In this document: positions 49,601 to 64,000 of the stretch, piece by piece | How positions within the stretch are numbered: position 1 is the stretch's first letter | Layout of the letters: each line of letters starts with the position of its first letter | Assembly: GCF_026130045.1 (NCBI RefSeq) | Contig: NZ_JAIBNX010000005.1 | Coordinates: 33,637 to 97,636 of the forward strand | DNA: 64,000 bases | Reading direction: 5' to 3' | Source: Micromonospora sp. CPCC 205371 | GTDB taxonomy: Bacteria > Actinomycetota > Actinomycetes > Mycobacteriales > Micromonosporaceae | The notes under the pieces: generated by a model | The model's input: the letters and a program-made list of their open reading frames with translations, nothing else | Told to the model about the DNA's origin: nothing | Databases searched by the model: none | Program-made: the position numbers and the translations under genes

Positions 49601-51517
49601 GACGCCGTAGCAGTTGTGTAGGGCGATGTATGCCTTTACGCGTTGGAGTTCGAGGTGGTACTCCTCCGGGTCGAGCTCGACCTCCAGTTCGCGGGCTTGG
49701 CGGCGGAGGTATTCGGCGGCTACCTGGTTGATGGCCTCGTTGAGGAACGCGCCGGAGCCGAGCGCCGGCTCGCAGATCGTCCAGTCCAGCAGCTCGCGGG
49801 CTGGTGTCACGGTGCCGTCCTGGTCCAGCCGGTACTTCAGGGCGAGCTGGACGGTGACCTCGGTCAGTGACTGGGGTGTGTAGTAGGAGGCGCTGGTCTG
49901 CCGGTCGCGGCCCGCGAGCCGGTAGACGAACTGGCCGGGGTCGTAGGTGACCCGGCTGCGTACGCCGGTGTACGGGTTCTCCTTGTAGACGAATACGTTG
50001 TCGTCATACTCCTCCACTTTGGAGGCTGGGATCATCCAGGAGCCGTCTTTGGCGTCGCCATTCTTGGCCACCTCGTAGAGTTGTTCGGTGGCGACGAAGC
50101 CGGTGTAGGACATCAGTCCCTCGTAGACCGCGCCGAGCTGGTTGATGCCCAGTTGGGCGTACGAGATGAAGCCGCCGCGCCCCTTCTTGGTGCCCTTGCT
50201 GAGCATCAGGCGGCGCAGCACCTGGTAAAGGGTCTTGTTCCGGAGCCGGGTGTCGAGCTTCGGCGCGTCGGGGTCGTCGGGGTCGCTGCCCGGCCGTGGG
50301 ATCTGCCATCCGATCAGCTTGGTCTTCTCGGGGAGGAAGAGGTCGGAGCGCAGCGGTTCGAAGCGGAGGCCGACGTCTTCGCTGTCCTTCTCCCCCGCCG
50401 TCTGGCCGGCGCGCGGCCGGTGACCGTCGTTCACCATTCGGAAGAGCAGGTCGAGCGACTCGTACAGGTGAAATCCGCCTTCGGCGGTCGGTGCCAGCCG
50501 CCGGTAGATCAGGTCGCCCAGGCGGGCGAGGCTGTAGCCCTCGACGTACTCGGGGTCGTTGACCGGCAGGACGCCCAGCTCCGGCCGTGCCTCGGCGTAG
50601 AGGAGGAAGAGGATCCGGTACAGGTACCGCAGCGCCTCCCGGCCCAGTTCCTTGGCGAGATCGTCCAGTTCCATGATCTCCTGCGGCTGGTGGCCGGCCT
50701 GCCGGATGCGGTCCAGCACCTCGTTGGCGATCAGCTCGACGGATACGCGCAGCCCTTCGCGTAGCTCGCTAGAGACGCCGACCGCGTGCTGCCGGGAGCC
50801 GGCGACCAGGTCGGCCAGCGGCTCGGTGCCGCCTTCTGCCGGCGGACGAAGCGAGTCGGCGCCGAAGAGCGCCGCGATGACGTCTAGTTCCTTGTCGTTG
50901 TTGCGGCCGTAAGCGATGTCGAGGCTGACCGCGAGGTAGCGCCCTTCACCCCAGACGCTGCGGTCGGCGAGTGTGATCACGCCACCGCTGAGAATGAGGA
51001 TGTACCGGGGCGGCTGCTCAGCGGCGAACAGCCAGGATGCCAGCTTGGCTCCGGTATCGATCACGGTGCCGTCGGCGAGGGTGACGGGGTCGAGAAGGGG
51101 GCCGGCGCCGGCCGGCTCCCGGGCGGCGGCGGTGTGCGCGGCCTCCCCCCAGGCCCGCCCGATGCTGCCGTGACCGGTGTTCTGCTCGGCGGGGGCGACC
51201 GGGATCTGGTGCTCGTGTCCGGCCCGTTCGATGGTGCGGACCTGTGGTTGCGGGTCGAAGCCGAGCCGCCGGAGGATTTCGCCATGCACCTTGCGGAGCC
51301 GTTCGGGGTCGTAGAGCTCCAGGTCGGCCAGCTCGGTTTTGGCGTTGAAGTAGTCCCGGCGCCAGCCGCGCAGCCCTGCCCGCGGAGTGAGCCGGCCACC
51401 CTTCTCATCTTCGGCCCACTGTTTGAACAAACCGCCCTTGAGTGTGGCCGGGAGCACCTCGGCGAGATAGTGCGCGGAGAGGTACTCGCCCCGGTTGGTC
51501 AATGATTCGAAACTCAT
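46604..51517 (-). CDS. Very large Eco57I-type adenine methyltransferase
   Basis: The 1637-residue protein has the N6-adenine methyltransferase motifs in gamma order: SASYYTPQSLTEVTVQLALK, motif I ICEPALGSGAFLNEAI near 585, CYGVDLNRTAVELAEVSLWL, and motif IV DLQVGNPPWVRPDWKED near 1015. About 430 residues separate motifs I and IV, much more than in simple methylases. A ~500-residue N-terminal region and a ~500-residue C-terminal region may bind DNA and other subunits. No clear nuclease motif was seen. Methylases of this size and neighbourhood resemble DrmMI of class 1 DISARM and PglX of BREX. It probably marks host DNA so that the helicases ignore it. It overlaps both neighbours by ATGA. Confidence 0.87.
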   Translation of the reverse strand: MSFESLTNRGEYLSAHYLAEVLPATLKGGLFKQWAEDEKGGRLTPRAGLRGWRRDYFNAKTELADLELYDPERLRKVHGEILRRLGFDPQPQVRTIERAGHEHQIPVAPAEQNTGHGSIGRAWGEAAHTAAAREPAGAGPLLDPVTLADGTVIDTGAKLASWLFAAEQPPRYILILSGGVITLADRSVWGEGRYLAVSLDIAYGRNNDKELDVIAALFGADSLRPPAEGGTEPLADLVAGSRQHAVGVSSELREGLRVSVELIANEVLDRIRQAGHQPQEIMELDDLAKELGREALRYLYRILFLLYAEARPELGVLPVNDPEYVEGYSLARLGDLIYRRLAPTAEGGFHLYESLDLLFRMVNDGHRPRAGQTAGEKDSEDVGLRFEPLRSDLFLPEKTKLIGWQIPRPGSDPDDPDAPKLDTRLRNKTLYQVLRRLMLSKGTKKGRGGFISYAQLGINQLGAVYEGLMSYTGFVATEQLYEVAKNGDAKDGSWMIPASKVEEYDDNVFVYKENPYTGVRSRVTYDPGQFVYRLAGRDRQTSASYYTPQSLTEVTVQLALKYRLDQDGTVTPARELLDWTICEPALGSGAFLNEAINQVAAEYLRRQARELEVELDPEEYHLELQRVKAYIALHNCYGVDLNRTAVELAEVSLWLNVMHPGLQAPWFGLHLRRGNSLIGGARRLYKPEQLADKSWLTTAPEDKPFRDGEIEPGTIHHFLLPADGWGAVAGEKEARELAPTETERLKKWRSAIRKPPSAKGKRKEPSQVARLQALAGRVEYLWQLVRQRLEISEDEIRRDIKVWGADDLPPVRQAVPREKILADLTTPGTPYWRLKTLMDVWCALWFWPLDKVGLLDGSDPVYPAGPVEVTHVKDMPVYDEPVSFELQDLFGEVAPQQLKLPTKPTGTRQYTVAEQLRKQVPLADLDDWLAFAEALIGRSDIPAGSLISDFSSLSELEDYEDVLPGLMGMDAAYRLADRFPWLQAAEGVAEQQGFFHWELTFAQAFSKGGFDLQVGNPPWVRPDWKEDVVLAECDPWFQLAAETSVGIRQKRQAALMTEPWPRAYVLGELAANAGLGASLGGAVAYPLLAGTQLDLYRAFMCRVWDHLAETGTAGLIHPDSHFSGGREGPLRAAAYHHLRLHAHFQNRRLLFPDIDWNRQYSVNIYGRSQEISFLHLSWLFDPTVVVESLTHDGSGEAPSIKHNGAWDLRPHSSRAVKVDRARLATWQRLRTEVDEPMERTPLLFPVSVVEEGAIAALTTVPRRLGMLGPRISSGFNEGKSVKDGVIRRALDRPSRWDGVILRGPQIGVATPFAKQPPNTGTYDPLIDITALAADGVPATDYVRACTPERFTAAQDLWDGRPYTESYRLAWRTMVPYNTERSLFAAIIPPGTMHIDGVHSLAMRREVDTVLAAAFWAALPLDYFLRITGLSNFKKAEARMMPAGSGNHPLAVPALLRILRLNCLTEVYADLWYRLFEPSWIGESWACEWDGLNALNRSGSGQLRGAWGMSTPLRDERARRAALVELDALVSVWLGIDASQLTALYKSRFPQLVRYEALTWFDARGEKIAEHRSAFGWKQTKETYQQLMAHLHDPKGNPPPDGYTPPFYKADRENEYRQAHAVFSKRLQDAIDAGWQPS

Positions 51518-54303
51518 GCGGCGTTCTCCGAAGGCGTGACGAGGACGGCGAGCACCCGCAACAAGGGCGTGCCTGAGGTCTCCAGACGATTCAGGAGGTC
51601 GTTCTGCTCGTCCACTGTGGCGTGAACTCGCCTACGGCGCGGGGCAGACAGCTCGTCGAGGAGACTGGCTTGTTCGAAGTGGACAAGGCGTTCGCGGTAC
51701 CGGCGCAGCGGCTCGGCGTTCGCCTCGGCCCACTCGTCGCGCTTCGCGGCGAGATGGTCGCGGGCCGCTGCGACAGCTACCGGCACCAGCTCCTGCACCG
51801 GACCGAGTTGGATCGGCGTGGCCCGGTTGACCATGGCTGGTCCGACGCCGGCGGCGACGAGCGCCTCGTCCATCGATGCGATGACCGACTGGTCCGGCAG
51901 ACCGGAGACGGCCATCCACTCGACCACGGTGGGCTGGCCAAGGCGGTTTCCGTACACGCCCTGGATCAGGAAGACTGGACCGTCCACATCGGCCTCCAGG
52001 ACCGGCGCTTGCTGGCGGCCCAGGCGGATGAGCACCTTGTCCACGAGCCAATCGATCATCGGGTGCACATCGCTCAGGAAGGCGATGTCCGGCCATACAG
52101 CCGCTTCGGCCTTGCGGGCGTCGTCAAGCTTCCGCTGCGCCAGCTTGCGGTCGAGGGTGACCCGTAGCCGCAGCTTGTCACGCTCCTCGTGCGCCTTGAG
52201 GTAGGAGCGCGGCAGATCCAGCAATCGCTGCACCAGATCGTCGGGCGCGAGGAACGTGATCAGCTCGTCCTCCCGACGCAGGTCGATGCGGTCTTCGGGC
52301 CTGTCGTCGTACAGCTCACGCAGCGCCACGTCGACGAAATCGCCGGTGGAGTCGAAAAGCTTGGGTACCCGCGCCTTCGGCACCTCGGCCGCCGCCGGAG
52401 CTTCGCCCACCGCCGCCATGAGGTCCGCGAGTACGTCGTATTCCGCCGCACCACTGGCGTACGACTCGTCCACGGTCTTGCCGGCGAGCAGGTCCTTGAC
52501 CAGGCGGTCCTCTTCCACCTTGGCGTCGTACATACCGGTGACGGCCTCGACGCTGCCGAGGCTGCGGTGGGCGACCTCCTCGCGTTCGAGCAGTTTCTCC
52601 GCGACGGTCCGGTCGTCCTTCGCATCCGGCACCTTCGAGGTGAGGATGAGCGCCCGGAACTGCGGCTGATGGCGCTGGCCGTAGCGGTCGACGCGGCCGT
52701 TGCGCTGTTCGATGCGGATCAGGCTCCAGGGAATGTCGTAGTGGATCAGGTGGTGGCACTGCTGATGCAGGTTGACGCCCTCGGACGCGACGTCACCGGT
52801 GAAAAGCAGCCGCACGGGGCTGCCTTCCGACTCGAACTCCTGCAGTACGGTCTGCTCGTCCTTGTCGGCCAGGCCGCCGTGCAGCACCCGCACGGCGGCA
52901 CTGCCGAGGCCGAGCCGTCCGGGCACCACCGTGGCGAGCCACTTGAGCGTTGGTACGCGTTCGGAGAACACCACCGCTCGTGTCGCGCTGCCCGGCTTGA
53001 CGCCGATCTCCTTGAGCTCGGTCACCAGGCGTTCGAGCTTGGCGGAGTCGTTATCGGACATGGCGGAGGACAGTTCGGCCAGGCGAGCCAGCGCGGCGTC
53101 TTCGGCGCCGGTGGCCTTCTTGCGGCGTTCGGCCACCGTCGCGGCCAGCGCAACGTGCGAGGACAGGAAGGACTTCAGCAGCGTGTACGGGAACAGCCGA
53201 TCCATGCCTCTTAACGGCTGGTCGCTCCACTTGCCAGCGAGCCACACCTCCGTCAACTCCGAGAAGATACGCTCCTCAGCGTCGGTAGCCACACAGTGCA
53301 GCGGCTGCGACGGTCCGCGGTCGGCCCAGCGGTCGCCGATCTGGTCGCGTACCTCCGGGCTTATCTTCGTCCGGCGCAGGTACAGGTGGGCGATGTCCTT
53401 GGCTTCGTAGTTCTTGGGATCGGCGATCGCGGCCGGGTCGAGCAACGAGATCAGCTCGGCGAACGACTCCTTGTCACCGTTGTGCGGAGTGGCGCTGGCC
53501 AGCAGGAGCGCGTCGGTCCGGATGGCCAGACGACGGGCCAACTCGTTGCGCTGGGTGCCCTTGTTGATCAAGTTGTGGGATTCGTCGATGACGACGACGT
53601 CCCAGTCGATCGCGTCCAGGTGGTGCCCGAACTGCCCGGCGTCCTTGAGGGTGTCGACCGAGATGATAGCCCGCTTGAAGTACGTGAACGGGTTGCGACC
53701 GGCCGGGATCTCCTGCTGGATGCGCTGGATGCCGGTCGAGTCCAGCCGCACGAGCGGGATCGCGAAGCGGGTCCACAGCTCCCGTTGGAACTGCTCCAGC
53801 ACCTGCTGCGGGGAGACCACCAGGATCCGGTCGCCGCGGCCGCGCCGGATCAGCTCGGCAAGGATCAGTCCGATCTCCAGCGTCTTGCCCAGCCCGACCA
53901 CGTCGGCGAGCAGGATTCGCGGGCGCAGCCCAGACAGCGCCAGCTCGACCGGCCGCTGCTGGTAGGTCAGCGGGTCGAGAAGGAACCGGTCGGATAGCGC
54001 CAGGCCGCGCTCCGAGCGGGGCAGCGGGGTGCGTCGCAGGACCGCCTCCAGGAAGAGCCGGCTGATCCGAAACCGCGGTGAGGTGTCCTGTACGAGGATG
54101 GTGTCTTCGGGCCGCATCGCGCGGACCTCGTCCAGGCCGGTGAAGAACGTCGCTTCCACGTCCTGGACGAACTCGGACACGCCGACGGCCTTGACCATGA
54201 CGCCGTCGTGGAGCGTCGGCTTGGCGGTGCGGACCAGCCACTCCTCGTCGCGGACCTCGATTCGGGTGCCGGGCGCGAACGAGCCCGACTCCACAGTGGT
54301 CAT
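51514..54303 (-). CDS. SNF2-family helicase (DrmD-like)
   Basis: ATG 54303 overlaps the kinase stop (ATGA) and begins MTTVESGSFAPGTRIEVRDE; an upstream ATG at 54369 lies inside the kinase gene and is rejected. The 929-residue protein has a short DNA-binding-like N-terminus and then the SNF2 core: YQQRPVELALSGLRPRILLA, Walker A DVVGLGKTLEIGLILAEL near 137, DESH in VVVIDESHNLINKGTQRNEL near 239, and helicase-C GDVASEGVNLHQQCHHLIHY with RIEQRNGRVDRYGQRHQ near 540. Its place directly before a giant Eco57I methylase is that of drmD before drmMI in class 1 DISARM. It lacks a nuclease motif. Confidence 0.88.
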   Translation of the reverse strand: MTTVESGSFAPGTRIEVRDEEWLVRTAKPTLHDGVMVKAVGVSEFVQDVEATFFTGLDEVRAMRPEDTILVQDTSPRFRISRLFLEAVLRRTPLPRSERGLALSDRFLLDPLTYQQRPVELALSGLRPRILLADVVGLGKTLEIGLILAELIRRGRGDRILVVSPQQVLEQFQRELWTRFAIPLVRLDSTGIQRIQQEIPAGRNPFTYFKRAIISVDTLKDAGQFGHHLDAIDWDVVVIDESHNLINKGTQRNELARRLAIRTDALLLASATPHNGDKESFAELISLLDPAAIADPKNYEAKDIAHLYLRRTKISPEVRDQIGDRWADRGPSQPLHCVATDAEERIFSELTEVWLAGKWSDQPLRGMDRLFPYTLLKSFLSSHVALAATVAERRKKATGAEDAALARLAELSSAMSDNDSAKLERLVTELKEIGVKPGSATRAVVFSERVPTLKWLATVVPGRLGLGSAAVRVLHGGLADKDEQTVLQEFESEGSPVRLLFTGDVASEGVNLHQQCHHLIHYDIPWSLIRIEQRNGRVDRYGQRHQPQFRALILTSKVPDAKDDRTVAEKLLEREEVAHRSLGSVEAVTGMYDAKVEEDRLVKDLLAGKTVDESYASGAAEYDVLADLMAAVGEAPAAAEVPKARVPKLFDSTGDFVDVALRELYDDRPEDRIDLRREDELITFLAPDDLVQRLLDLPRSYLKAHEERDKLRLRVTLDRKLAQRKLDDARKAEAAVWPDIAFLSDVHPMIDWLVDKVLIRLGRQQAPVLEADVDGPVFLIQGVYGNRLGQPTVVEWMAVSGLPDQSVIASMDEALVAAGVGPAMVNRATPIQLGPVQELVPVAVAAARDHLAAKRDEWAEANAEPLRRYRERLVHFEQASLLDELSAPRRRRVHATVDEQNDLLNRLETSGTPLLRVLAVLVTPSENAA

Positions 54304-55364
54304 CGGTGGGACCCCTCCTCCAATGTGGGCCTGCGAGCGTATTGGCGGCGCATCTTCTCGATCAGCCACCCGACATCCACCTGTGGCTCGGCGAGCGTCG
54401 GCGGCGCCGGTGTGTCGCTGCTCTCCGATCCGCCGAGGTCGACGTCTTCCGGATCCTGCTGCGGATCTTCGAGGTCCGGCGGGACGGTGAGTTCCATGCC
54501 GGGGTCGAAGGTCAGCTGGCTGACCTGGCGACGCCGGTCGAAGGCAGACACGCCGCCGGCGGTGGCCACCTCCAGCAGCCGGGCTCGGACCGCGTCCAGC
54601 GCGGGCCGGGCGGCCGGGTCGAACGCCAGCATCGCCCCGAGCAGCGGCGCCAGTTCGGCCGGCACGCCGGTCATGTTCGGCTGGTCATCCGGATCGGTGA
54701 TGCGCACCAGCAGCGCCCACGAGTTCGTCGACGGGTAGAGGCCGTGGCCGGTGAGTGCGAACACCAGCGTGGCGGCCAAGCCATAGATGTCGGCGGCCGA
54801 GGGCAGCTCGCGCTCGCTCTTCACCTGTTCGGGTGACATGTACGCCGGCGTACCCACGATGGCGCCTTGTTCGGTCAGGTAGCTGTCCCGGTCGCGTAGG
54901 ACTGCCAGACCGAAGTCGATCAATACCGGGCCGTCCGGGCCGAGGATGACGTTCTGCGGCTTGAGGTCCCGGTGCAGCAACCCGGCCTGGTGTACCTTTG
55001 CCAGCCCGTCGGCGAGCATCGCGCCGACCATGGCCGCGTGGGGCGCGGGCAATGGTCCTCGGGCGTCGACGTACTGCCGCATGTTGAGGCCAGGTATGTA
55101 CTCGACGGCGAGCCATGCTGGGTCGGCGGTGAGGTCGGCGTCTTCTAGCCGGGCGACCCGCGATCCGTACACCGTCTTGAGGTTTTCCACCTCCGCGGCG
55201 AATCGCTCCCGGACCGTCTGGTCGCTCACCAGGGGATGCTTGATGAGCTTGACGGCCACCCGGTCGGCGGTCGGCGACACGGCGAAGTAGACGTCTCCCA
55301 TGCCGCCCGAGCCGAGCGGTTTGACCAGCCTGTAACCCCCAACAGTGGTCAACTCCGGCGTCAT
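54300..55364 (-). CDS. Soluble Ser/Thr protein kinase (first gene of the helicase/methylase operon)
   Basis: ATG 55364 is preceded by GGGGAG five bases upstream, so it is preferred to the ATG at 55442, which adds an unstructured stretch. The 354-residue protein has the full kinase domain: PLGSGGMGDVYFAVS, Lys in RVAVKLIKHP, LLHRDLKPQNVILG, LIDFGLAVLRD and GTPAYMSPEQVKSER. A Pro/Asp/Glu-rich tail ends in VDVGWLIEKMRRQYARR. There is no membrane helix. Its stop overlaps the start of the SNF2 gene, so it is the entry gene of the chain. It may gate the system on infection or respond to a host signal; this is inference. Confidence 0.9.
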   Translation of the reverse strand: MTPELTTVGGYRLVKPLGSGGMGDVYFAVSPTADRVAVKLIKHPLVSDQTVRERFAAEVENLKTVYGSRVARLEDADLTADPAWLAVEYIPGLNMRQYVDARGPLPAPHAAMVGAMLADGLAKVHQAGLLHRDLKPQNVILGPDGPVLIDFGLAVLRDRDSYLTEQGAIVGTPAYMSPEQVKSERELPSAADIYGLAATLVFALTGHGLYPSTNSWALLVRITDPDDQPNMTGVPAELAPLLGAMLAFDPAARPALDAVRARLLEVATAGGVSAFDRRRQVSQLTFDPGMELTVPPDLEDPQQDPEDVDLGGSESSDTPAPPTLAEPQVDVGWLIEKMRRQYARRPTLEEGSHR

Positions 55365-55397
55365 GCGACTCCCCACTTCGCGGACGGTGGCTGAAGT

Positions 55398-55426
55398 ATC
55401 ACAGGTTGGGTGGATGCGGTGGTCAA
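55398..55426 (-). promoter_or_regulatory. Candidate promoter of the kinase-helicase-methylase operon
   Basis: On the minus strand TTGACC (55426-55421) is followed 17 bases later by TGTGAT (55403-55398), 34 bases before the ATG of the kinase. This fits a housekeeping sigma-type promoter with a short leader. The upstream N6-methylase gene points the same way and ends only 94 bases earlier, so read-through from it is also possible. Confidence 0.35.
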
Positions 55427-55458
55427 CCGGTTGGGACACCATGTTAGGTACATTTCGC

Positions 55459-57378
55459 TCACGGCGTCACCGGACCGTCAGGGCGAATTGCACCATTGGT
55501 CAGGCCATCCGTGGCATGGCGGATCAACTCCGCGCCAAGGGTCGCGACCGTGTGGAGCGCACGTTCAAAGGCGACGAGCCGGCGGTACGCCTCGCCGTAT
55601 GTCTGCTGGTCGGTCAGCGGGAGCCGGCGTACCTGGGCCCGCCGGACGTCAAACCGGAGCGTGCCAGACAGGCTGCTGGCCTGGCGTTCGTTGGCCGGCG
55701 CGCGCAGCTGCCCTGCCAGAAACCAGGGGTCGAGCGCGGCCGGATGCGTGCGTAGCAGGAAAAGATTGTGCCCGAGCAGCGGGCCCGCGTCGGTCACCAC
55801 GCGCGCTGTGAGCTGCCGGGCCATCATCGGCACGACCACATCACCGACGGCGACCGGAATCCGCTGACTGAGCCGGCCCGCGCCGCGACCGGACGCCTGC
55901 CGGCCTTCGAGCACATCTGGAACGGTAAGCACGGACGGCTCGCCATCCTCACCGGCCGGCTCACCGTCGTCGGCGCCGGCCGGTGCACGAAGCGGCCCGA
56001 GCAGCTCCAGCGCCCCCGCCCGCACCAGCTCAGCGACGGAAACGGCGGGCACGGTCGAGGCATCGGCAGCCGTGGTGTCGGGGACCAATCGGGGTAGTTC
56101 CTCCACGGCGGCGCGGAACCGGTCACGGGCGCGCACGAGGAGTTCGCCGGTTCGCTCGCCGGCAAAGGCCGGGCGCCGTCGTGCTGGAGTGAGGTCGACC
56201 TCGTCATCAAGCAGCTCGATGACCGGTACGGCCCAGCTCTCCTCGGGTAGATCGGTCGCGGCCTCCGACGCCGCCAGAGCCCGGAAGGCGGTCAGGACCT
56301 CAGCCTGTGTCTCCTTCAGCACCTTCCCCGGCGCCGCCGCGTCGACCAAAAGGACCGCCGGGGGTACAGGCGCGTCGGGCACTGGACGCCGCAACACCCA
56401 CAGATGCAGGGGTACGCCATGCGGTGCGGCGGCCCCTGCCGGTAGCGCCACCACCCCGCGGAGCGCACCACGGCGCAGCAGCTCGGCTCGGATGCGCCGG
56501 CCCGCCCGGCGGCTGGCGGCCGCGGGCGGCATCAAGAGCACGGCGCGACCGCCTGGGCGAAGGTGCGCGACCGCGTGCTGCACCCACGCCAACTCCGGCT
56601 CCGTACGCGGCGGCGAACCGTACTCCCAGCGGGGGTCGTAGCCGAGCTCCTGCTGCCCCCAGTTGGTGACGCCGAACGGCGGGCTGCACACGACCGCATC
56701 GACGCGACGGTCCACGAAGGCATCAGCCCGCAGTGAGTCGCCGCTGCGCACCTCACCGTCGGCGCCATGCAGGGCGAGCCACAGCCCGGTGAGCCGCGCG
56801 AGCTGTTCGTCGATCTCCTGCCCGTATGCGATGCCACACCCGGCCCGGACGGCCGCCCGGAGGATGCCGCCTGACCCACACGCGGGATCGAGAACGGCGC
56901 CGGTACCTGCCCCAGCCAGCCCCACCATGAGATCGGCCAGCTCATCTGGCGTGGCACGAAGACGTGCCCGTCGCCACAGTTCGTCGAAGAGCGCTTGGGC
57001 GCCTAGTTCGTCAGCGAGGGCGCCCACCTCGCGCAGCGGACCGCGCTCGGCCGTCTCACGCTGCTCGCCTCGCTCGCGCTCAAGCAGATGGGCGCCGACC
57101 GCCGCCAGGGTGGCGGCGTGGTTGCCGCCCGCCGTGGCCAGCCGCTGCCACAGCTTGTCCATCTTTGACAGCTCCGGCAGCTTCCCTTGCTCGCGGAGCC
57201 ACCGCTCGACCTCGCCAAGGTCGAACTCAGGGCTGGTCGCTGTTCCCCCGATCGGAGCTGGGAAGTCGGCGTGCCGCTTGCGCCAGTTGCTGACCGCAGC
57301 GCGGCCGACGCCGGCAAGCCGCGCGATCTCCGCCGCTGTGGTGGTCGGGTTGTTCTGCACCACAGCAGTGTTACACAC
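55459..57378 (-). CDS. N6-adenine DNA methyltransferase with N-terminal helix-turn-helix (HsdM-like)
   Basis: The 639-residue protein begins with a DNA-binding helix-turn-helix (TTAAEIARLAGVGRAAVSNW, then FDLGEVERWLREQG). The HsdM-like catalytic domain follows: motif I AVLDPACGSGGILRAAV near 166, AYGQEIDEQLARLTGLWLAL, and motif IV VVCSPPFGVTNW near 230, an S-P-P-F variant of NPPF. The C-terminal third contains DVVVPMMARQLTARVV and WFLAGQLRAPANERQASSLS, which resembles a type I specificity (HsdS) half-domain. It may thus be a fused methylase with its own target recognition. GTG 57378 or GTG 57363 could be the start. It precedes the kinase by 94 bases on the same strand and could be part of the same defence unit. 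Confidence 0.82.
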   Translation of the reverse strand: MCNTAVVQNNPTTTAAEIARLAGVGRAAVSNWRKRHADFPAPIGGTATSPEFDLGEVERWLREQGKLPELSKMDKLWQRLATAGGNHAATLAAVGAHLLERERGEQRETAERGPLREVGALADELGAQALFDELWRRARLRATPDELADLMVGLAGAGTGAVLDPACGSGGILRAAVRAGCGIAYGQEIDEQLARLTGLWLALHGADGEVRSGDSLRADAFVDRRVDAVVCSPPFGVTNWGQQELGYDPRWEYGSPPRTEPELAWVQHAVAHLRPGGRAVLLMPPAAASRRAGRRIRAELLRRGALRGVVALPAGAAAPHGVPLHLWVLRRPVPDAPVPPAVLLVDAAAPGKVLKETQAEVLTAFRALAASEAATDLPEESWAVPVIELLDDEVDLTPARRRPAFAGERTGELLVRARDRFRAAVEELPRLVPDTTAADASTVPAVSVAELVRAGALELLGPLRAPAGADDGEPAGEDGEPSVLTVPDVLEGRQASGRGAGRLSQRIPVAVGDVVVPMMARQLTARVVTDAGPLLGHNLFLLRTHPAALDPWFLAGQLRAPANERQASSLSGTLRFDVRRAQVRRLPLTDQQTYGEAYRRLVAFERALHTVATLGAELIRHATDGLTNGAIRPDGPVTP

Positions 57379-57397
57379 CCGTCAAGCACGATGTCTG

Positions 57398-57426
57398 TTG
57401 ACAGGGTTCACAAACGCTGTTGTCAT
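57398..57426 (+). promoter_or_regulatory. Candidate promoter giving a leaderless transcript
   Basis: TTGACA (57398-57403), a 17-base spacer, and TGTCAT (57421-57426) lie just before the GTG at 57434. Transcription would begin about seven bases after the -10 box, that is at the start codon itself. No ribosome site precedes the GTG. Leaderless mRNAs are common in actinobacteria, so the two observations support each other. Confidence 0.45.
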
Positions 57427-57433
57427 TGAGAGC

Positions 57434-59176
57434 GTGAAAGTACTGCACCCGACCGGGGAACCGCTGCCGCTGTTCGATCTGCCCGCAGGCGACCCTGGCA
57501 CGCCTGCGGGCGAGCCGACGCCGGCCACCTACCAGACGACCGTCTACCAGCTCGACGGCGTCACGAGCACGATCGAAGGGCTGTATCAAGCGCTCGATCA
57601 CAGGTACCTACGCGACCACGACTTCGTCGTTGAGGAGCGCCAGGTTGGCGACGCGCCGGCACTGCTGGTCCACGGTGTCGTGCCCCGTGAACGTGCCGAG
57701 TGGTGCGACGTGCTCGCCGCCCTGACCGGGCGAAGCGTCGACGTCGGCTACAGCAGCGGCGGGGGCACGCTGCTCGTGGTCGTCGACGGCCAGGTCTACG
57801 CGCTGACCTACGGCACGGTCGGCCGGCACATGGTGAACCTGGACCGGGCGAACCCAGGCTTCGGCATCGGCTTCGCGGTCCGGTCGATCGCCCCGAACGA
57901 GATCAAGCAGGTACGCCGCCGGGTGTTCGGAGCAATCGGCCGCATCGACCGCAACTTCGTACCCGGCGGGCAGCACATCCGCATGTACGGCATCGACAAA
58001 TGGGGCGAGATCGTTGGTCAAGTCTGCGGCCGCACCAGCAACCGCCGACTGACCGCGTACCGCACCACCGGCAGGCCGACACCAGTCGAAGGCAGCGATT
58101 CACTGCGCATCCACCTGGGAACCCACCCGGTCAACCTCGTGGCAGACCTCCGCGAGATCGCCCGGGTGTGCCGACAGCAGGCGCCCTACCCAGACCTTGA
58201 GTTCATCACGCAGATCCGCCCGGTCAAGGCGGGCGACCCACGACTGTCTGAGTTGGAGAGTCGACTTGACGAACTGCTGGCGATGGCCGAACCAGCCGAC
58301 CTCGGCCTCGCGGTACCGGGCCGGCTCGTCGGTGACATCGAGCGGACCGGCTCGTACCGCCTCCAGATGCCATACTCCGGCCAGCGCCCTTCACGGCCCA
58401 CTGAGCTGACACTCGCGGACGTCCTTCAGCAGACCGGCACGGTGCCCGCTGGCTCACGCTGGACCGCGCTGCGCAAGGGTCGGATCACCATGTACACCGA
58501 CACGGAGGGCCGCGACGAGATCGGATCGGCCGCAGCGTCCCACTGGATCACGGCGCAGCTCGCGTACGAGGCGAGCCAACTGCTCCTGCACGACGGCGGC
58601 TGGTACGAGATCGGCCACCGGCACCGCGAGTTTCTGCGCAATGAGATCGAGCAGATCCTCGACAGGTCATCGAGCATCAGCCTGCCAGGCTGGCGCACCG
58701 ACGAGGACGAGGAGCGGTACAACAAACGCGTGGCGGCCGACGACGATCGCTTCGTCCTCCTGGACCGGCGCTATCTGAGCATCGCCCAGCATCCCCGGGG
58801 ACGAGGCATCGAGGCGTGCGACCTGCTGGGGCCAGAGCTGGAGCTGATCCACGTCAAGCGGGCCGGCACCAGCGCGCCGCTCAGCCACCTGTTCGCCCAA
58901 GGCGAAGTCGCCGTAGACGCCTTGAAATACGAGACGGACGCCCGCGAGGCCCTGGTGGAGCTCGTCCGGGCACAGCGGCCCAACCATGCGATCAACCTGG
59001 ACTTCCGGCCGCACAAGGTCGTCTACGCCATCGCGCTCGAGTCCGGTAAGACGCTGACCGCCGACACGCTCTTCACGTTCGCACAGGTGGCGCTCTACCG
59101 TGCGGTCAAGGTGCTGCGCAACGAGGCCGTAGACGTCGAAGTCATCGGCATCCCAGTAATCAAAATGTCAGCCTGA
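57434..59176 (+). CDS. TIGR04141/DUF6119 sporadically distributed protein
   Basis: The 580-residue protein starts at GTG 57434; the long open frame upstream overlaps the divergent methylase gene and is rejected. It shows the family pattern: TVYQLDGVTSTIEGLYQALD at the N-terminus, then LLVVVDGQVYALTYGTVGRH and NPGFGIGFAVRSIAPNEIKQ. A long middle region and C-terminal LELIHVKRAGTSAPLSHLFA and VVYAIALESGKTLTADTLF complete it. The GLGF..R.....I..IR-type core is typical of TIGR04141. The family's biochemistry is unknown to me, but members sit sporadically beside restriction and defence genes, as here between an N6-methylase and a single-chain restriction-modification gene. Confidence 0.8.
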   Translation: MKVLHPTGEPLPLFDLPAGDPGTPAGEPTPATYQTTVYQLDGVTSTIEGLYQALDHRYLRDHDFVVEERQVGDAPALLVHGVVPRERAEWCDVLAALTGRSVDVGYSSGGGTLLVVVDGQVYALTYGTVGRHMVNLDRANPGFGIGFAVRSIAPNEIKQVRRRVFGAIGRIDRNFVPGGQHIRMYGIDKWGEIVGQVCGRTSNRRLTAYRTTGRPTPVEGSDSLRIHLGTHPVNLVADLREIARVCRQQAPYPDLEFITQIRPVKAGDPRLSELESRLDELLAMAEPADLGLAVPGRLVGDIERTGSYRLQMPYSGQRPSRPTELTLADVLQQTGTVPAGSRWTALRKGRITMYTDTEGRDEIGSAAASHWITAQLAYEASQLLLHDGGWYEIGHRHREFLRNEIEQILDRSSSISLPGWRTDEDEERYNKRVAADDDRFVLLDRRYLSIAQHPRGRGIEACDLLGPELELIHVKRAGTSAPLSHLFAQGEVAVDALKYETDAREALVELVRAQRPNHAINLDFRPHKVVYAIALESGKTLTADTLFTFAQVALYRAVKVLRNEAVDVEVIGIPVIKMSA

Positions 59177-59238: not shown

Positions 59239-62200
59239 TCAGAACAGCGGGGGCGGTGAGTGCCCATCCCCGGTGGGAAGCTTGTAGGCGCGGGGCGAGA
59301 CCGGGAGCACCGCAACTGTCTTGAGGTTTGACGTGGACACCAACCCACCCGCGCAAATGCGCGTCAGCAGATCGTCCTGTCGCGGTTCCAGCGCGACGCA
59401 TCGATCCAGGACCGTGACGATCTCTCGCAACTCGTCCGTGAGCTCGTGACCCCAATCGCGTATCGATTCGTCATCGAGAACAGACGAACGACGTCGGAAC
59501 CGCTGGTCCGCACTGCGGTAATTAAACCAGTGCCTAATCACGTGCATTCCGCCGACTTCGTAGTCCCAAACCCGCGCGTCGACCCGGCGGAGCCTTCCTT
59601 CCCCGACGATCAGCGACTCACCATGGGCCTCATATGTGATGGACTCCGGTAGATCATCGCGAGCGTAAGAGATCTCCCCCTCCACATCCGGACCATGACG
59701 GTCGACAAAATCGGAGAATTTGGGTCGCCGCCTTTTACGGTCGGCGGTACTCTCCCCGAAAGTATGTAGCCACAAGATCTCGTATCCAACTCGGACAGCC
59801 TCGTCCCATAGCTCACGATCCGATGTTAATGGTACCCGAATACCCGGATGCTCTAGTTCCCGTACGAACCGCCGAGTGTATCCGGGGTGCGCCACAATTG
59901 CCGCGACATAGGCGAGCAAGTCCGTTGCCTCGGGCCGACACCCCATCACGTCACCTAGGAAGTCGCAAAGCTCGGGAGTAACATTCGGCCTTTCTCTGGA
60001 TGTATCGCAATAGAGGGGAAAGACACGTCCGCTACGACCGTTGTAATGGTGGAGGTCAGGGATGAGATGCGTAAATGTTAGACCGGGCCCACTGTCGATC
60101 GCATGGTTACTCTGTTCGGTGATGTAGATTTGATCTGGAGAACGCACCGCCCACAGTGGCGGCCGAGGCATTACCATTAGTCGACTATCTGGCAGCAGCC
60201 ATTGACGATCAAACGAACGGTATGCGACCCTAACCGCCTCGAGGGGCGGCCCTTTTTCCTTGGCCAGCGTTCGCTTCGGCACCGCGAAGCCCGGAAGGGG
60301 GCGCACAACGCTGTCGATCTTCCGATCTCGGGACTCAGGAAGCATTTCACGGCGCATGGCTTCGCTGCTGTGGATAAACCTCCGCCAGCGCCGCTTTAAG
60401 GTATCTCTGTCCGGCGCGTAGACCCAGGTTCGACCAGTCGTCACACCCCGCGATGACTGGGGAAACAGGTCTTTCAGTCCAGGGTAGAGGTCCCACGCAC
60501 TGTCTCCTCTGGCAAGAAAAGGATCTTGCCAGTCGTCACGGCATGTCAGCCAACCTGGATCAGCCAGGCGCAACCCACGGAGGCGTGCCAGTTTGTCGTT
60601 CCGTGTGCCAGTAAGCGCTATCGTGTGGACGGTCGCCCGTGCACTCGGGTTACCCTCTCCGTAGCGAGCAAAGATAGCGATGCACAACTGCCTCCCGACG
60701 TCCACACCGAACAACCGGGTGCTCTGTTTCGGGCGGTTTCCTTCCGGTGATAATTCGAAGATCCAACCTTCGTCACAGGTTCGCCTCAAGTACTCACGCA
60801 TCCCCGCGAACGACTTTCCCTTAACGAAACTGGCTGGCGTAACAAAGGCAACAACGCCTTGCGGCTCTCTGGGATGGGCTTCGAATGCCTTCCACAGCGC
60901 CCAGCGCCAGAAACACCATGGAAGTCCATAAAGGTCGGACTCGTACCTGCCACCGCCCTGCGTTCGGAACTCGTCCAAAGAAGGACGTTTAGGATGATCT
61001 CCGGCCTGGACAGCTGTCTTGCGGCGACTCTCGATCCAGGGCGCTCTACCCATGGTGTTTTCGACGTGCGGCGGGTTGCCGATTACCACCATGACAGGAA
61101 CTTCGCGCTTGATCCGGTTCGCTTCTTGCCGTGCGCGCTCGATAACCCGATAGCCGGCTCGTAGACGGCCCTGTTGCTTGACCGGGTCCTCCAGCGCATC
61201 GGTGAGAAATCGCACCTCTGACACTGGCAATTCGGTCTTGAACTGCATCCTCATCGCCTGGTGGAGCCGAAGCTCTGCCACGGCGTAGGGCGCGGCTTGG
61301 ATCTCGAAGCCGACCAGCCGCTCTTGGAAGAACCGCCGGAGTCGTGGTGCGCGAGCGCCTCTGCCTTGCTTGTCGTCGATGGTCGCAGCTACCGACCTCA
61401 GCACCTCGACGAGGAAGGTACCAGTGCCCATCGCTGGGTCCACTACCTTCACGTCATCGTCAGCAAGTCCCCAGGGCCGCTTGAACCTGTCGCGAAGGAT
61501 TTCGTCGACGAAGTCCACGAGCGCACCTGCGACACCTTGGGGCGTGTAGTACGAACCGCTGCGCCGCCGCAGGTCAGGGTCGTACGTAGCCAGAAACCGT
61601 TCATACAGATCGGCATGGACATCCGTGCGACGATCGTCGATCGAGCTCCAGTCGACACAACCGATCACGCGGTAGAGCGTCCCGATGGTGCGAAGCTCGT
61701 CCGTAGCCTCGGTATCTGTTAACACCGCCAGGGCGCGACCCATGAGTGAGTGCTTCTTTCCCAGTAGACGGGCGATCTCGTGCACCGGTGTCTCGTCAAA
61801 AGAGATCCCGTCCACACGTGCGAGGAGGAGGGCGAACGTGACAGTTTGGGCGTAGGCATCGGCGAATCCGACGTCGTCGAGTTCAGGGAAGAGAAGATCC
61901 CGCCAGTCAGCCGCGAGCAGGGTCAGTTCCTCATGTGCGACATCCCGGAGTGGATCCGCCAAGATCGCAGCAACCTCATCGCGCAGGAGCCGACACAGAC
62001 CGGCGACAACGTTGATGAGTTCGGCAAGGGTGCGTGGCCGCTCCGGCTCCCATAGAAGGAAGTCCTCGATCAGCGCCTCGAAGGCAGACCCTTTGGGCGC
62101 GAGGGGCCGCTTGGCATCGTATAGATCCCCGTCAAGCTTGACCACCGGGCCAGCAAGTTGGCCATATTTGTAGCAAGCCCATGTCACTCCATCGGAGTAC

Positions 62201-62592
62201 AAGACGTTGGGAAGGACCTTCAGCTTCTCCCACTGCTGGCGGTCCCTCCGCTCCGGACGCTGCCAGGTCGAGGGCACGCCGCGCGCCGGTCTCTTCAACT
62301 CCACGTAGCCGACCCTGGCTCCGCCGACATCAACGGCGAAGTCCGGTCGTGCGCGGATGGTCTTCAACCGCACCTCTCCATATGGGACAGCCTTAATCCC
62401 CAAGTGCTGGCCCATCTTGCGCAAGAGTTCCTCCAGCGGACCTCGGAGCTGGTCCTCCTCCTCGCCGCCCCTACCGAGTTTCTCCGCGACGACCGCACCG
62501 AACGTCGCAACCGCGTCGGAGACGGGATCCTTGACAAGCCGCAACGCGGGAGCACGGGGACTAGCAGATCGACGACGTGCGGGGTGCGCCAT
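59239..62592 (-). CDS. Single-chain restriction-modification enzyme (type ISP/IIG-like), no helicase
   Basis: The 1117-residue protein starts MAHPARRRSASP at ATG 62592. Near residues 78-105 a PD-(D/E)xK nuclease signature reads RARPDFAVDVGGARVGYVEL, then KRPARG. The adenine methyltransferase follows, with YYTPQGVAGALVDFVDEIL, motif I VVDPAMGTGTFLVEVL near 387, and motif IV MVVIGNPPHVENTMG near 507. The C-terminal half (HHYNGRSGRVFPLYCD, GYEILWLHTFGES) is the target-recognition part typical of Type_ISP_C proteins. Classic ISP enzymes (LlaBIII) also carry a helicase between nuclease and methylase; none is present here. It therefore probably cuts near its site like a type IIG enzyme. Confidence 0.85.
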   Translation of the reverse strand: MAHPARRRSASPRAPALRLVKDPVSDAVATFGAVVAEKLGRGGEEEDQLRGPLEELLRKMGQHLGIKAVPYGEVRLKTIRARPDFAVDVGGARVGYVELKRPARGVPSTWQRPERRDRQQWEKLKVLPNVLYSDGVTWACYKYGQLAGPVVKLDGDLYDAKRPLAPKGSAFEALIEDFLLWEPERPRTLAELINVVAGLCRLLRDEVAAILADPLRDVAHEELTLLAADWRDLLFPELDDVGFADAYAQTVTFALLLARVDGISFDETPVHEIARLLGKKHSLMGRALAVLTDTEATDELRTIGTLYRVIGCVDWSSIDDRRTDVHADLYERFLATYDPDLRRRSGSYYTPQGVAGALVDFVDEILRDRFKRPWGLADDDVKVVDPAMGTGTFLVEVLRSVAATIDDKQGRGARAPRLRRFFQERLVGFEIQAAPYAVAELRLHQAMRMQFKTELPVSEVRFLTDALEDPVKQQGRLRAGYRVIERARQEANRIKREVPVMVVIGNPPHVENTMGRAPWIESRRKTAVQAGDHPKRPSLDEFRTQGGGRYESDLYGLPWCFWRWALWKAFEAHPREPQGVVAFVTPASFVKGKSFAGMREYLRRTCDEGWIFELSPEGNRPKQSTRLFGVDVGRQLCIAIFARYGEGNPSARATVHTIALTGTRNDKLARLRGLRLADPGWLTCRDDWQDPFLARGDSAWDLYPGLKDLFPQSSRGVTTGRTWVYAPDRDTLKRRWRRFIHSSEAMRREMLPESRDRKIDSVVRPLPGFAVPKRTLAKEKGPPLEAVRVAYRSFDRQWLLPDSRLMVMPRPPLWAVRSPDQIYITEQSNHAIDSGPGLTFTHLIPDLHHYNGRSGRVFPLYCDTSRERPNVTPELCDFLGDVMGCRPEATDLLAYVAAIVAHPGYTRRFVRELEHPGIRVPLTSDRELWDEAVRVGYEILWLHTFGESTADRKRRRPKFSDFVDRHGPDVEGEISYARDDLPESITYEAHGESLIVGEGRLRRVDARVWDYEVGGMHVIRHWFNYRSADQRFRRRSSVLDDESIRDWGHELTDELREIVTVLDRCVALEPRQDDLLTRICAGGLVSTSNLKTVAVLPVSPRAYKLPTGDGHSPPPLF

Positions 62593-63113
62593 GGAACCCC
62601 CTACGGCGTAACGCTGATCTCTTAGGTTGACGCCTCTCCCACGGTCACCACAACCTGCAATCGAGTGATAGCCATACGTAACTTGATCTCGTAGGCTCGA
62701 CTATTGGGCCTGTATCCAACCTCGTCGCACTCAACTCGACCGTCCGACAAGCGACGGCCACGGAGCCGCCCCACGCCAGAAAGCGGCCGAGTACCGGACC
62801 GCCAAGAGGGTGCGCATTCGCCTGCCGTGGTATGAGTCGATCCGGCGGCGGGCCGTAGTAGTCCGCGAACCAGGGTGCCGAAAGTCAGCAAAGGTCTTGA
62901 CCGGCCGGCTCCCAGGCGCCGCGGCCAGTTTCCTGGCGCACGATGTTCCCGGGCCTGGGGTTGCGCGGCGTTCGGCCTCGCCGCAGTTCACCCATTCGGT
63001 CGACGAAACGGGGCCTGTTCTCTCGCTGGTCCAGGATGGATGTCGGTCTTCCACCCGGGTAGCGTGCCGGTGTCCACCCCGGCAAGTCACGCGTTATGTC
63101 TGGGAGCTGTTTG
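62593..63113. other. 521-bp gap with no recognisable feature
   Basis: Between the divergent restriction-modification and DUF262 genes I see no gene, repeat or clear hairpin. It must hold the promoters of both. Open frames here have poor coding bias and overlap on both strands. Confidence 0.5.
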
Positions 63114-64000
63114 ATGAGCAAGCTGGGCACGATTCTCGACCAGATCGACTCGGGCACAATGTTGCTGCCTGAGTTCCAGCGTGGCTACGTGTGGAACCGT
63201 GACCAGGTACGTGGGCTGATGCGCTCGCTCTATCTCGGCTACCCGGTCGGTGCCCTGCTGGTGTGGGAAACCGAGACCGACCCCGGCTCGGTGCGCGGAA
63301 CAGGGCAGGTCGGCGGCGGTGTCAAGCTGCTCCTTCTCGACGGCCAACAACGGATCACTTCGCTGTACGGGGTCATCCGTGGCCGTCCCCCGGCCTTCTT
63401 CGAAGGGGACGCCGCCGCGTTCACTGGCCTGCGCTTCAACGTCGAGGAGCAGACCTTCGAGTTCTACGCGCCGGCGAAGATGAAGGGCGACCCAAGGTGG
63501 GTCGACGTCACGGCGCTGTTCGTCGATGGCCTGGAGCAGCAGATCGAGCGGTTGCATCGGGAGCCGGCGGTTGCACCGATGATCGTGACCTACATGACCC
63601 GGCTCAGCAAGCTGCGCAACATGCTCGAGCGGGAGTTCCACCAGGAGAAGATCACCGGGGCGGACAAGGGCATCGACGCCGTCGTCGAGATCTTCAACCG
63701 GGTTAACTCGGGTGGCACCAAGCTGTCGAAGGGCGACCTGGCCCTGGCGAAGCTTTGCGCCGACTGGCCCGAGGCGCGGGCCACCATGCGCGAACACTTG
63801 CGGGCATGGGGCAAAGCGGGCTACGAATTCAACCTGGACTGGCTGCTGCGCAACGTCAACGCCGTCGCCACCGGCCGGGCGCAGTTCGAGGCGTTGGAAC
63901 ACGTCTCGTCCGACGACTTCGCCGCCGCGTTGAGCGCGTCGGCCAAGTACATCAGTGGCTTCCTGGACGTGGTGTCCGGTCGGCTCGGCCTGGACCACAA
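63114..64000 (+). CDS. DUF262 (GmrS/ParB-fold) protein, partial at window end
   Basis: ATG 63114 with GGGAG seven bases upstream opens a frame that runs past the window edge, giving 295 residues. The N-terminus MSKLGTILDQIDSGTMLLPE, FQRGYVWN is the classic DUF262 start. LLLLDGQQRITSLYGVIRGR carries the conserved DGQQR motif of the DUF262/ParB-nuclease fold, and VVEIFNRVNSGGTKLSKGDL is the second family box. DUF262 proteins include GmrS, which with a DUF1524 HNH partner forms the type IV restriction system GmrSD against modified phage DNA. Whether a DUF1524 domain follows cannot be seen here. Confidence 0.88.
   Translation, partial: MSKLGTILDQIDSGTMLLPEFQRGYVWNRDQVRGLMRSLYLGYPVGALLVWETETDPGSVRGTGQVGGGVKLLLLDGQQRITSLYGVIRGRPPAFFEGDAAAFTGLRFNVEEQTFEFYAPAKMKGDPRWVDVTALFVDGLEQQIERLHREPAVAPMIVTYMTRLSKLRNMLEREFHQEKITGADKGIDAVVEIFNRVNSGGTKLSKGDLALAKLCADWPEARATMREHLRAWGKAGYEFNLDWLLRNVNAVATGRAQFEALEHVSSDDFAAALSASAKYISGFLDVVSGRLGLDH

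What the first reader, a model, noticed from the sequence alone, without database searches (positions are those of the whole stretch)
57398..59176. TIGR04141 protein with an apparent leaderless promoter beside restriction genes
A TTGACA-17-TGTCAT promoter places the transcription start at the GTG itself, and no ribosome site is present. The TIGR04141/DUF6119 family has no assigned biochemical role that I know. Its place between an N6-methylase and a single-chain restriction enzyme supports a defence role.
Basis: partly seen in the sequence, partly recalled or inferred. Interest (0 to 1): 0.5.

Follow-up and report, generated by a model that had tools for sequence, protein, structure and literature searches.

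The report
Restriction-linked DUF6119 protein, predicted nuclease
A protein family of unknown function looks, by predicted structure, like a DNA clamp joined to a nuclease, and it often sits beside or inside bacterial DNA-restriction gene clusters, so it is probably an overlooked part of the defence against viruses and foreign DNA.

Summary
The promoter is conserved: among 28 homologous intergenic regions, TTGACA is in 27 and a hexamer ending in AT lies 17 nt on in all 28. The leaderless state is this genome's own; the other 27 have leaders with a ribosome site.

The defence reading is supported and sharpened. In 64 of 114 scored, deduplicated loci an HTH-methylase, HsdM, HsdR, DrmD-like or IIG gene lies within 10 kb. 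The commonest linked order is <hsdR<hsdS<hsdM<HTH-methylase | DUF6119>; in some alphaproteobacterial plasmids and an archaeon it lies inside the operon, hsdM-hsdS-DUF6119-hsdR. The type ISP neighbour is not recurrent.

A confident model (pLDDT 90) suggests an RdgC/RexA-like N-terminal part and a PD-(D/E)XK-like C-terminal domain with seven polar residues invariant in 57 relatives. Most likely it is an accessory DNA nuclease of restriction loci. Fold scores are middling, the literal (D/E)xK is absent, 50 of 114 loci lack a listed partner, and there is no biochemistry. Searches of the paper library found no description.

The parts
57398..57403 (+). -35 box TTGACA
   Evidence: kept in 27 of 28 homologous intergenic regions
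57421..57426 (+). -10-like box TGTCAT, 17 nt after the -35 box
   Evidence: T[CG]T[CT]AT in 24 of 28; final AT in 28 of 28
57381..57402 (.). GTCAA-N12-TTGAC inverted arms between the divergent genes: back-to-back -35 boxes or an operator (inferred)
   Evidence: GTCAA arm in 28 of 28; distance between arm starts 17 in 20 and 20 in 8
57434..59176 (+). DUF6119/TIGR04141 gene, 580 aa, GTG start, predicted leaderless
57524..58186 (+). RdgC/RexA/Iml3-like N-terminal part (residues 31-251)
   Evidence: RdgC Z 6.8 and 6.7, Iml3 5.6, RexA 3.7
58613..59173 (+). C-terminal nuclease-like domain (residues 394-580)
   Evidence: pLDDT 96.4; ten best VIA rows are PD-(D/E)XK-fold proteins (class recalled), Z 6.9 to 5.9
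58709..58900 (+). invariant polar residues E426, D444, E460, D463, K475, H485, Q489
   Evidence: each 57 of 57
55459..57378 (-). HTH + N6 methylase + TRD-like C-terminus (HTHMT; TRD-like by eye), 639 aa, divergent partner; motifs DPACGSG and SPPF
54300..55442 (-). serine/threonine protein kinase, 380 aa
51514..54369 (-). DrmD-like SNF2 helicase, 951 aa
   Evidence: 304.5 bits, cut-off 610
46604..51517 (-). type IIG / Eco57I methylase-like protein, 1637 aa
40194..46607 (-). DruE-like DEAD helicase with MZB domain, 2137 aa
34777..40197 (-). UvrD-like helicase (724 aa), protein kinase (314 aa), UvrD-like helicase (753 aa)
59239..62592 (-). type ISP restriction-modification enzyme; neighbour, not a recurrent partner

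Best explanation
The gene encodes an accessory DNA nuclease of restriction-type defence loci. An RdgC/RexA-like N-terminal part binds or encircles DNA and a C-terminal PD-(D/E)XK-like domain cuts it. It works beside type I R-M systems and other DNA-targeting systems (here an HTH-methylase/kinase/helicase/IIG island), most plausibly as a back-up or guard effector that acts when the partner restriction system is engaged or inhibited. Shown: the conserved promoter, the linkage, the predicted fold, the invariant residues. Inferred: nuclease activity, DNA as substrate, partner-dependent activation. In this genome the gene is read from a conserved divergent promoter whose downstream leader was lost, so the mRNA is predicted to be leaderless.
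For: Linkage within 10 kb: of 79 named loci (chosen by similarity to the window) 37 have HsdM+HsdR and 44 an HTHMT; of 33 order-sample loci 8 and 11; of 21 others (19 plasmid, 1 phage, 1 archaeal) 9 and 3. Background: 84 HsdM_N matches in 150 genomes of the order (my sum of the table), about 0.2% of positions if genomes average 5 Mb. DUF6119 lies between hsdS and hsdR, ORFs overlapping, in Mameliella, P. albus, Actibacterium and Mesorhizobium plasmids, and in Methanosaeta; hsdS-DUF6119-hsdR also in a second archaeon. Linked and unlinked states change 16 times on a 118-row tree. The genome's other two copies sit beside hsdMSR and Wadjet JetABCD; relatives beside BREX, ietAS and pPIWI_RE. Structure: pLDDT 90.4 whole, 96.4 for the C-terminal domain; the ten best VIA rows of that domain are CdiA-CT (two), FokI, OkrAI, EcoT38I, SfsA, SduA (two), EndoMS and Can2, Z 6.9-5.9 (their PD-(D/E)XK fold is recalled); N-terminal part RdgC Z 6.8/6.7, Iml3 5.6, RexA 3.7, a shared DNA-binding fold according to the RexA paper (PMC11077077, passages). 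Seven polar residues of the C-terminal domain invariant in 57 of 57.
Against: Foldseek alone gave nothing at E <= 0.001; VIA only re-aligns Foldseek's top 1000, and its Z values stay below 8, where chance arrangements occur. The (D/E)xK signature is not literal: position 473 is H in 39, C in 16 of 57. 50 of 114 scored loci have no listed partner within 10 kb. For standalone loci the PADLOC scan of near genes (104) did not clearly exceed far genes of the same loci (62). Most HTH-methylase carriers lack DUF6119: HTHMT-like matches in 149 of 397 genomes (many of them plain HsdM-like) against 33 of 397 for DUF6119. No activity data.
Confidence: 0.6

Rival explanations
1. DUF6119 is a guardian like PrrC: held silent by the neighbouring type I enzyme and released to kill or arrest the cell when a phage protein inhibits that enzyme.
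For: Embedded in the hsd operon in alphaproteobacterial plasmids and an archaeon. PrrC is embedded in a type IC locus and switched on by phage T4 Stp (passages of PMC12707154 and PMC2610378). One kind of nuclease next to many different systems would suit a guard.
Against: It also sits beside systems without HsdR and alone; no ATPase or anticodon-nuclease family was matched; no toxicity data.
Confidence: 0.25
2. It is a helper of the restriction reaction itself, or a DNA-end processing or repair factor that limits self-damage, as RdgC modulates recombination.
For: RdgC-like N-terminal part; ORFs overlapping hsdS and hsdR in proteobacterial operons.
Against: Type I restriction cannot need it in general: HsdM_N is found in 55 of 150 genomes of the order, DUF6119 in 33 of 397.
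Confidence: 0.25
3. A selfish or unrelated cargo gene that merely accumulates in defence islands.
For: 50 of 114 scored loci without a listed partner; near and far genes of standalone loci both give PADLOC hits; one copy beside integrases in a phage record; copies beside transposases or phn genes.
Against: Repeated fixed order and orientation with the HTH-methylase, and overlapping ORFs inside hsd operons in distant phyla.
Confidence: 0.15
4. The GTG is not the start, or the transcript begins upstream, so translation is not leaderless.
For: Residues 1-19 are modelled with pLDDT under 50 and the N-terminal ends of relatives are not alike, so homology cannot fix the start; an in-frame TTG lies at 57398; nearly all relatives compared have a leader.
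Against: The conserved promoter ends 7 nt before the GTG, and the upstream TTG is the -35 box itself.
Confidence: 0.15

Closest known systems
PF19614 DUF6119 / TIGR04141 family
   Same: Full-length match above both curated cut-offs
   Different: No function is assigned to the family in those libraries; the nuclease architecture and the R-M operon position were found here
EndoMS/NucS, Shedu SduA, CdiA-CT DNase, FokI cleavage domain (PD-(D/E)XK-fold nucleases, class recalled)
   Same: Among the best fold matches of the C-terminal domain; invariant Glu/Asp/Lys/Gln set
   Different: No nuclease family at E <= 0.001 in Pfam, no PDB sequence match; (D/E)xK replaced by mostly [HC]-V-K
RdgC and lambda RexA
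   Same: Fold of residues 31-251; RexA and RdgC share a fold and bind DNA non-specifically (PMC11077077, passages)
   Different: Those proteins carry no such nuclease domain (recalled); no Pfam RdgC match
PrrC in type IC R-M loci
   Same: Accessory gene embedded in an hsd locus (passage of PMC12707154)
   Different: PrrC is an ABC-ATPase anticodon nuclease (abstract of PMC2610378); DUF6119 matches neither by Pfam
Regulatory methylases with an N-terminal HTH
   Same: HTH at the N-terminus of a methylase and a divergent gene with a short shared promoter region (passage of PMC12707154)
   Different: 41 of 51 HTH-methylases in DUF6119 loci lack one or both methylase motifs by a crude pattern

Membership tests
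DUF6119 / TIGR04141 | Whole-protein score above curated cut-offs | tested here: met
   393.7 vs 27 bits; 359.1 vs 35 bits
PD-(D/E)XK nucleases | Nuclease fold | tested here: inconclusive
   Ten best VIA rows are such proteins (class recalled), but Z 6.9-5.9, under 8; Foldseek E above 0.001
PD-(D/E)XK nucleases | Conserved acidic residues and lysine in the same domain | tested here: met
   E426, D444, E460, D463, K475, Q489 each 57 of 57
PD-(D/E)XK nucleases | Literal (D/E)xK signature | tested here: not met
   Residue 473 is H 39, C 16, M 1, A 1 of 57; a migrated Glu such as E460 is an inference
PD-(D/E)XK nucleases | Metal-dependent cleavage of nucleic acid | not testable with these tools
   needs protein
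RdgC family | RdgC sequence profile (Pfam) | tested here: not met
   Only DUF6119 at E <= 0.001
RdgC family | Ring-dimer fold | tested here: inconclusive
   Z 6.8 and 6.7, rmsd 5.4 and 5.0 over 187 and 193 residues; dimer not modelled
PrrC anticodon nuclease | ABC ATPase and anticodon-nuclease domains | tested here: not met
   Only DUF6119 at E <= 0.001
DISARM (window island) | DrmD above the NCBIfam cut-off | tested here: not met
   304.5 bits, cut-off 610
MADS (window island) | MAD2 and MAD6 above the NCBIfam cut-offs | tested here: not met
   26.3 vs 720 and 121.2 vs 460 bits; PADLOC shows mad1, mad2 and mad6 among the matches; the two UvrD-like proteins and the second kinase were not scanned with NCBIfam or PADLOC
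BREX (window island) | PglX above the NCBIfam cut-off | tested here: not met
   21.6 vs 900 bits
Known defence gene lists | Listed in PADLOC-DB 2.0.0 | tested here: not met
   0 families for DUF6119

The most novel reading that the evidence does not exclude
DUF6119 is a portable guardian nuclease, an RdgC-type DNA clamp fused to a nuclease, that plugs into type I R-M, BREX, Wadjet, pPIWI-RE and other DNA-targeting systems. In actinomycetes it pairs with an HTH-(pseudo)methylase platform gene whose downstream restriction cassettes are exchanged. The pseudo-methylase would sense DNA methylation state or R-M failure and set expression or activity of the nuclease.
Probability: 0.22. Interest if true: 0.8.

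Novelty: new variant of a known kind. Interest (0 to 1): 0.58.

Why it matters
A family annotated only as 'sporadically distributed' gets a testable activity and partners. Accessory genes inside R-M operons, such as PrrC, have exposed a layer of back-up immunity. The HTH-(pseudo)methylase gene with exchangeable type I, kinase/helicase/IIG and other cassettes also suggests a modular defence locus in Micromonospora-like genomes that the defence catalogues searched here do not list as one system.

Tried and rejected
1) Chance promoter: rejected by the footprint in close relatives, although the consensus scan found nothing and only 12 of 56 wider pairs had a scored promoter.

2) Leaderless start as a family trait: rejected; relatives have leaders with a ribosome site, including L086, L082 and L081, where DUF6119 directly follows the same intergenic region.

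3) Type ISP as recurrent partner: rejected.

4) Phage origin: tblastn found one of 50,697 phage records; a pattern-based scan of viral contigs found none.

5) Enrichment of PADLOC genes near standalone copies: near genes (104 scanned) and far genes of the same loci (62 scanned) both gave defence hits. Only the first 25 families are listed in each, so no exact comparison was made; not used as support.

6) Sequence homology to solved structures: none (best E 0.2). Rows not expected for a nuclease (CD38, Mglu, decarboxylases, citrate lyase) appear from Z 5.5 downward, and too.

7) A single rigid palindromic operator between the two genes: doubtful, because the distance between arms is 17 in 20 and 20 in 8 of 28 regions. 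By eye I recognised no sigma-70-like -10 box for the HTH-methylase.

8) Rows dropped. Promoter count: seven more distant HTH-methylase loci (L180, L182-L187) left out, six of them with a visible TTGAC[AT] and none with a -10 scored; L041, L088 and L181 left out as repeats of L161, L178 and L081. In one search the window fell outside the script's rule. Linkage count: no DUF6119 ORF found by the script in 7 of 40 order-sample loci and 1 of 80 named loci; 19 of 22 plasmid records were fetched (the three others are near-duplicates). Tree: of 134 rows, 8 short ones and 8 duplicates left out, 4 rows on short contigs not scored; quick method, with several long branches flagged. Named and order sets overlap, hence the deduplicated count. 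Background uses an assumed mean genome size.

9) Papers: DUF6119, 1 paper, on wheat MADS-box genes (listing only); TIGR04141, 0; 'sporadically distributed protein' + restriction, 0; MADS defence, PrrC, RexA/RdgC and R-M accessory genes, listings only; passages seen of PMC11077077, PMC2610378 and PMC12707154. bioRxiv is not held as such.

Full report
OBSERVATION. The DUF6119 ORF runs from GTG 57434 to 59176 on the plus strand, 580 aa. TTGACA (57398-57403), 17 nt, and TGTCAT (57421-57426) precede it, leaving 7 nt before the GTG; there is no usable Shine-Dalgarno. The finding's start coordinate is the -35 box. Family assignment is firm: PF19614 393.7 bits and TIGR04141 359.1 bits, far above cut-off. 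PADLOC has no matching family.

PROMOTER. The tool's consensus scan reports no promoter because it demands A at position 2 of the -10 box. Comparison settles it for close relatives. The HTH-methylase back to back with DUF6119 has orthologues in related genomes. In 28 of their upstream regions (window included) TTGACA stands in 27, and the hexamer 17 nt on is TCTCAT 12, TCTTAT 10, TGTCAT 2 and four others once each, all ending in AT. In 24 of the 28 the gene behind it starts M-R-K and appears to be the small lipoprotein-like gene (MRKTTTLAL...) seen whole in L045, L041 and L039. The script measured 29-38 nt from hexamer to start and a ribosome site in 26 of the 27 others; L081 was cut short by an earlier ATG. 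In L086, L082 and L081 DUF6119 itself follows, still with leader and ribosome site. In the window the likeness to relatives stops right after TGTCATTGA and the DUF6119 gene begins. The simplest reading is that the leader (and the small gene) were lost, leaving a leaderless GTG gene. Leaderless translation is common in actinomycetes (recalled), so this is plausible, but derived and unmeasured. In a wider set of 56 divergent pairs only 12 had a scored promoter of this type.

NEIGHBOURHOOD IN THE WINDOW. Divergent on the minus strand is a tight run of genes: HTH + N6_Mtase + TRD-like protein (HTHMT), kinase, DrmD-like SNF2 helicase, IIG/Eco57I methylase, DruE-like helicase, UvrD-like helicase, kinase, UvrD-like helicase. 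The members scanned do not reach the NCBIfam cut-offs for DISARM, BREX or MADS proteins. Downstream are a type ISP enzyme and a GmrSD_N protein.

LINKAGE. In 397 genomes of the order DUF6119 occurs in 33. Of 40 order loci fetched, 33 had a DUF6119 ORF found by the script; 8 have HsdM+HsdR and 11 HTHMT within 10 kb. Of 80 named loci from the genome collection, chosen by similarity to the window, 79 were scored: 37 with HsdM+HsdR, 44 with HTHMT, 48 with any listed partner. Of 21 plasmid, phage and archaeal loci, 9 have HsdM+HsdR and 11 any listed partner. After removing duplicates and short rows, 64 of 114 scored rows are linked and the state changes 16 times on a quick tree of 118 rows; all 23 scored rows of the 25-row clade that holds the window are linked. 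Background: 84 HsdM_N matches in 150 genomes of the order, about 0.2% of positions within 10 kb if genomes average 5 Mb, against 24% (8 of 33) in the order sample. The commonest linked order is <hsdR<hsdS<hsdM<HTHMT | DUF6119>. In Mameliella, Paracoccus albus, Actibacterium and Mesorhizobium plasmids the order is hsdM-hsdS-DUF6119-hsdR-SprT with overlapping ORFs; in Methanosaeta hsdM-hsdS-DUF6119-hsdR; a second archaeal locus has hsdS-DUF6119-hsdR, and an Elusimicrobia locus hsdM-hsdS-DUF6119-x-hsdR. S. meliloti, Rhizobium AB2/73 and Vibrio rotiferianus show other type I arrangements. Against this, the R. ruizarguesonis, Sinorhizobium sp., S. fredii and R. gallicum copies have no adjacent R-M system in the annotation shown; five plasmid loci came without annotation.

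OTHER DEFENCE PARTNERS. The genome's other two copies lie beside hsdMSR (L036) and beside a complete Wadjet JetABCD (L060). Elsewhere DUF6119 neighbours BrxC and an Eco57I methylase (L151; one BrxA and one BrxB match came from the pooled scan that held L151's nearest genes), ietA/ietS (L076) and a pPIWI_RE island (L153). For standalone copies PADLOC hits were found among near genes and also among far genes of the same loci, so that comparison adds nothing.

REVERSE VIEW. HTHMT-like proteins are commoner than DUF6119 (E <= 1e-15 in 149 of 397 genomes, including many plain HsdM-like hits). In 10 HTHMT loci picked from genomes without a DUF6119 match, the cassette behind HTHMT is kinase-DrmD-IIG(-DruE-UvrD) as in the window in 4, hsdM-hsdS-hsdR-kinase in 2, and more diverged DrmD/IIG-like sets in 4. 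So HTHMT looks like a constant gene with exchangeable cassettes, and DUF6119 an optional partner. Of 51 HTHMTs in DUF6119 loci, 41 lack one or both methylase motifs and 31 show the HTH pattern by crude searches; the window's copy has DPACGSG and SPPF. By analogy with regulatory methylases that carry an N-terminal HTH and bind between divergent promoters (PMC12707154, passage), HTHMT may control the divergent promoter; this is inference.

STRUCTURE. AlphaFold2 with 57 sequences gives pLDDT 90.4. VIA-align places RdgC (Z 6.8 and 6.7), Iml3 (5.6, 5.4), RnlA (5.9, residues 34-139) and RexA (3.7) on residues about 31-251, and EndoMS (7.2) and CdiA-CT (5.9) on the C-terminal part. The RexA paper describes RexA, RdgC and Iml3/Chl4 as sharing a DNA-binding fold (passages of PMC11077077). 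The C-terminal domain folded alone (pLDDT 96.4) has as its ten best rows CdiA-CT (two), FokI, OkrAI, EcoT38I, SfsA, SduA (two), EndoMS and Can2, Z 6.9-5.9; I recall all of these as PD-(D/E)XK-fold proteins. Foldseek alone gave no match at E <= 0.001, VIA only re-aligns Foldseek's list, and Z under 8 is not proof. Invariant in 57 of 57: E426, D444, E460, D463, K475, H485, Q489, also W90, F143, G144, P295, W390. The literal (D/E)xK is missing, so membership of the superfamily is not claimed; the claim is that it works like one.

MECHANISM. Most likely DNA is bound or encircled by the RdgC-like part and cut by the C-terminal domain, as an accessory of R-M and other DNA-targeting systems. Whether it is a primary effector, a guard like PrrC (embedded in a type IC locus; passages) or a processing factor is open; my shares are in the rival list.

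NOVELTY. Searches for DUF6119, TIGR04141 and the family's descriptive name with 'restriction' found no paper on the family in the library held; bioRxiv is not held as such. The kind (accessory gene of R-M loci) is known; this architecture and family in that role appear new on these searches.

Noticed in passing
window 34777-57378 (-): Eight genes: HTH-methylase, two kinases, DrmD-like, IIG, DruE-like and two UvrD-like helicases. Parts recur in related genomes (L208, L209, L211, L213) and those scanned do not reach the DISARM, BREX or MADS cut-offs: a candidate multi-gene defence system.
   Followed up: partly
L206-L215; window 55459-57378: HTH-(pseudo)methylase as a constant gene with exchangeable restriction cassettes behind it; 41 of 51 copies in DUF6119 loci lack one or both methylase motifs by a crude pattern.
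   Followed up: partly
L159-L179, L045, L041, L039: A small lipoprotein-like gene (MRKTTTLAL...) is the usual divergent neighbour of the HTH-methylase in close relatives, behind the conserved promoter; role unknown.
   Followed up: no
L060:10848-17673: Third DUF6119 copy of this genome next to a complete Wadjet JetABCD.
   Followed up: partly
L192, L193, L196, L197, L204: SprT-family metalloprotease gene directly after hsdR in type I operons that hold or adjoin DUF6119.
   Followed up: no
window 59239-62592 (-): Type ISP gene has lower third-position GC (0.67) than the large genes around it from 34777 to 63998 (0.78-0.87), suggesting recent arrival.
   Followed up: no
L077:7692-9401: DUF6119-like gene beside integrase genes in a Pseudomonas phage record: possible phage-borne defence cargo.
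   Followed up: no
window 63096-63998 (+): GmrSD_N (DUF262) protein running off the window edge, next to the type ISP gene.
   Followed up: no
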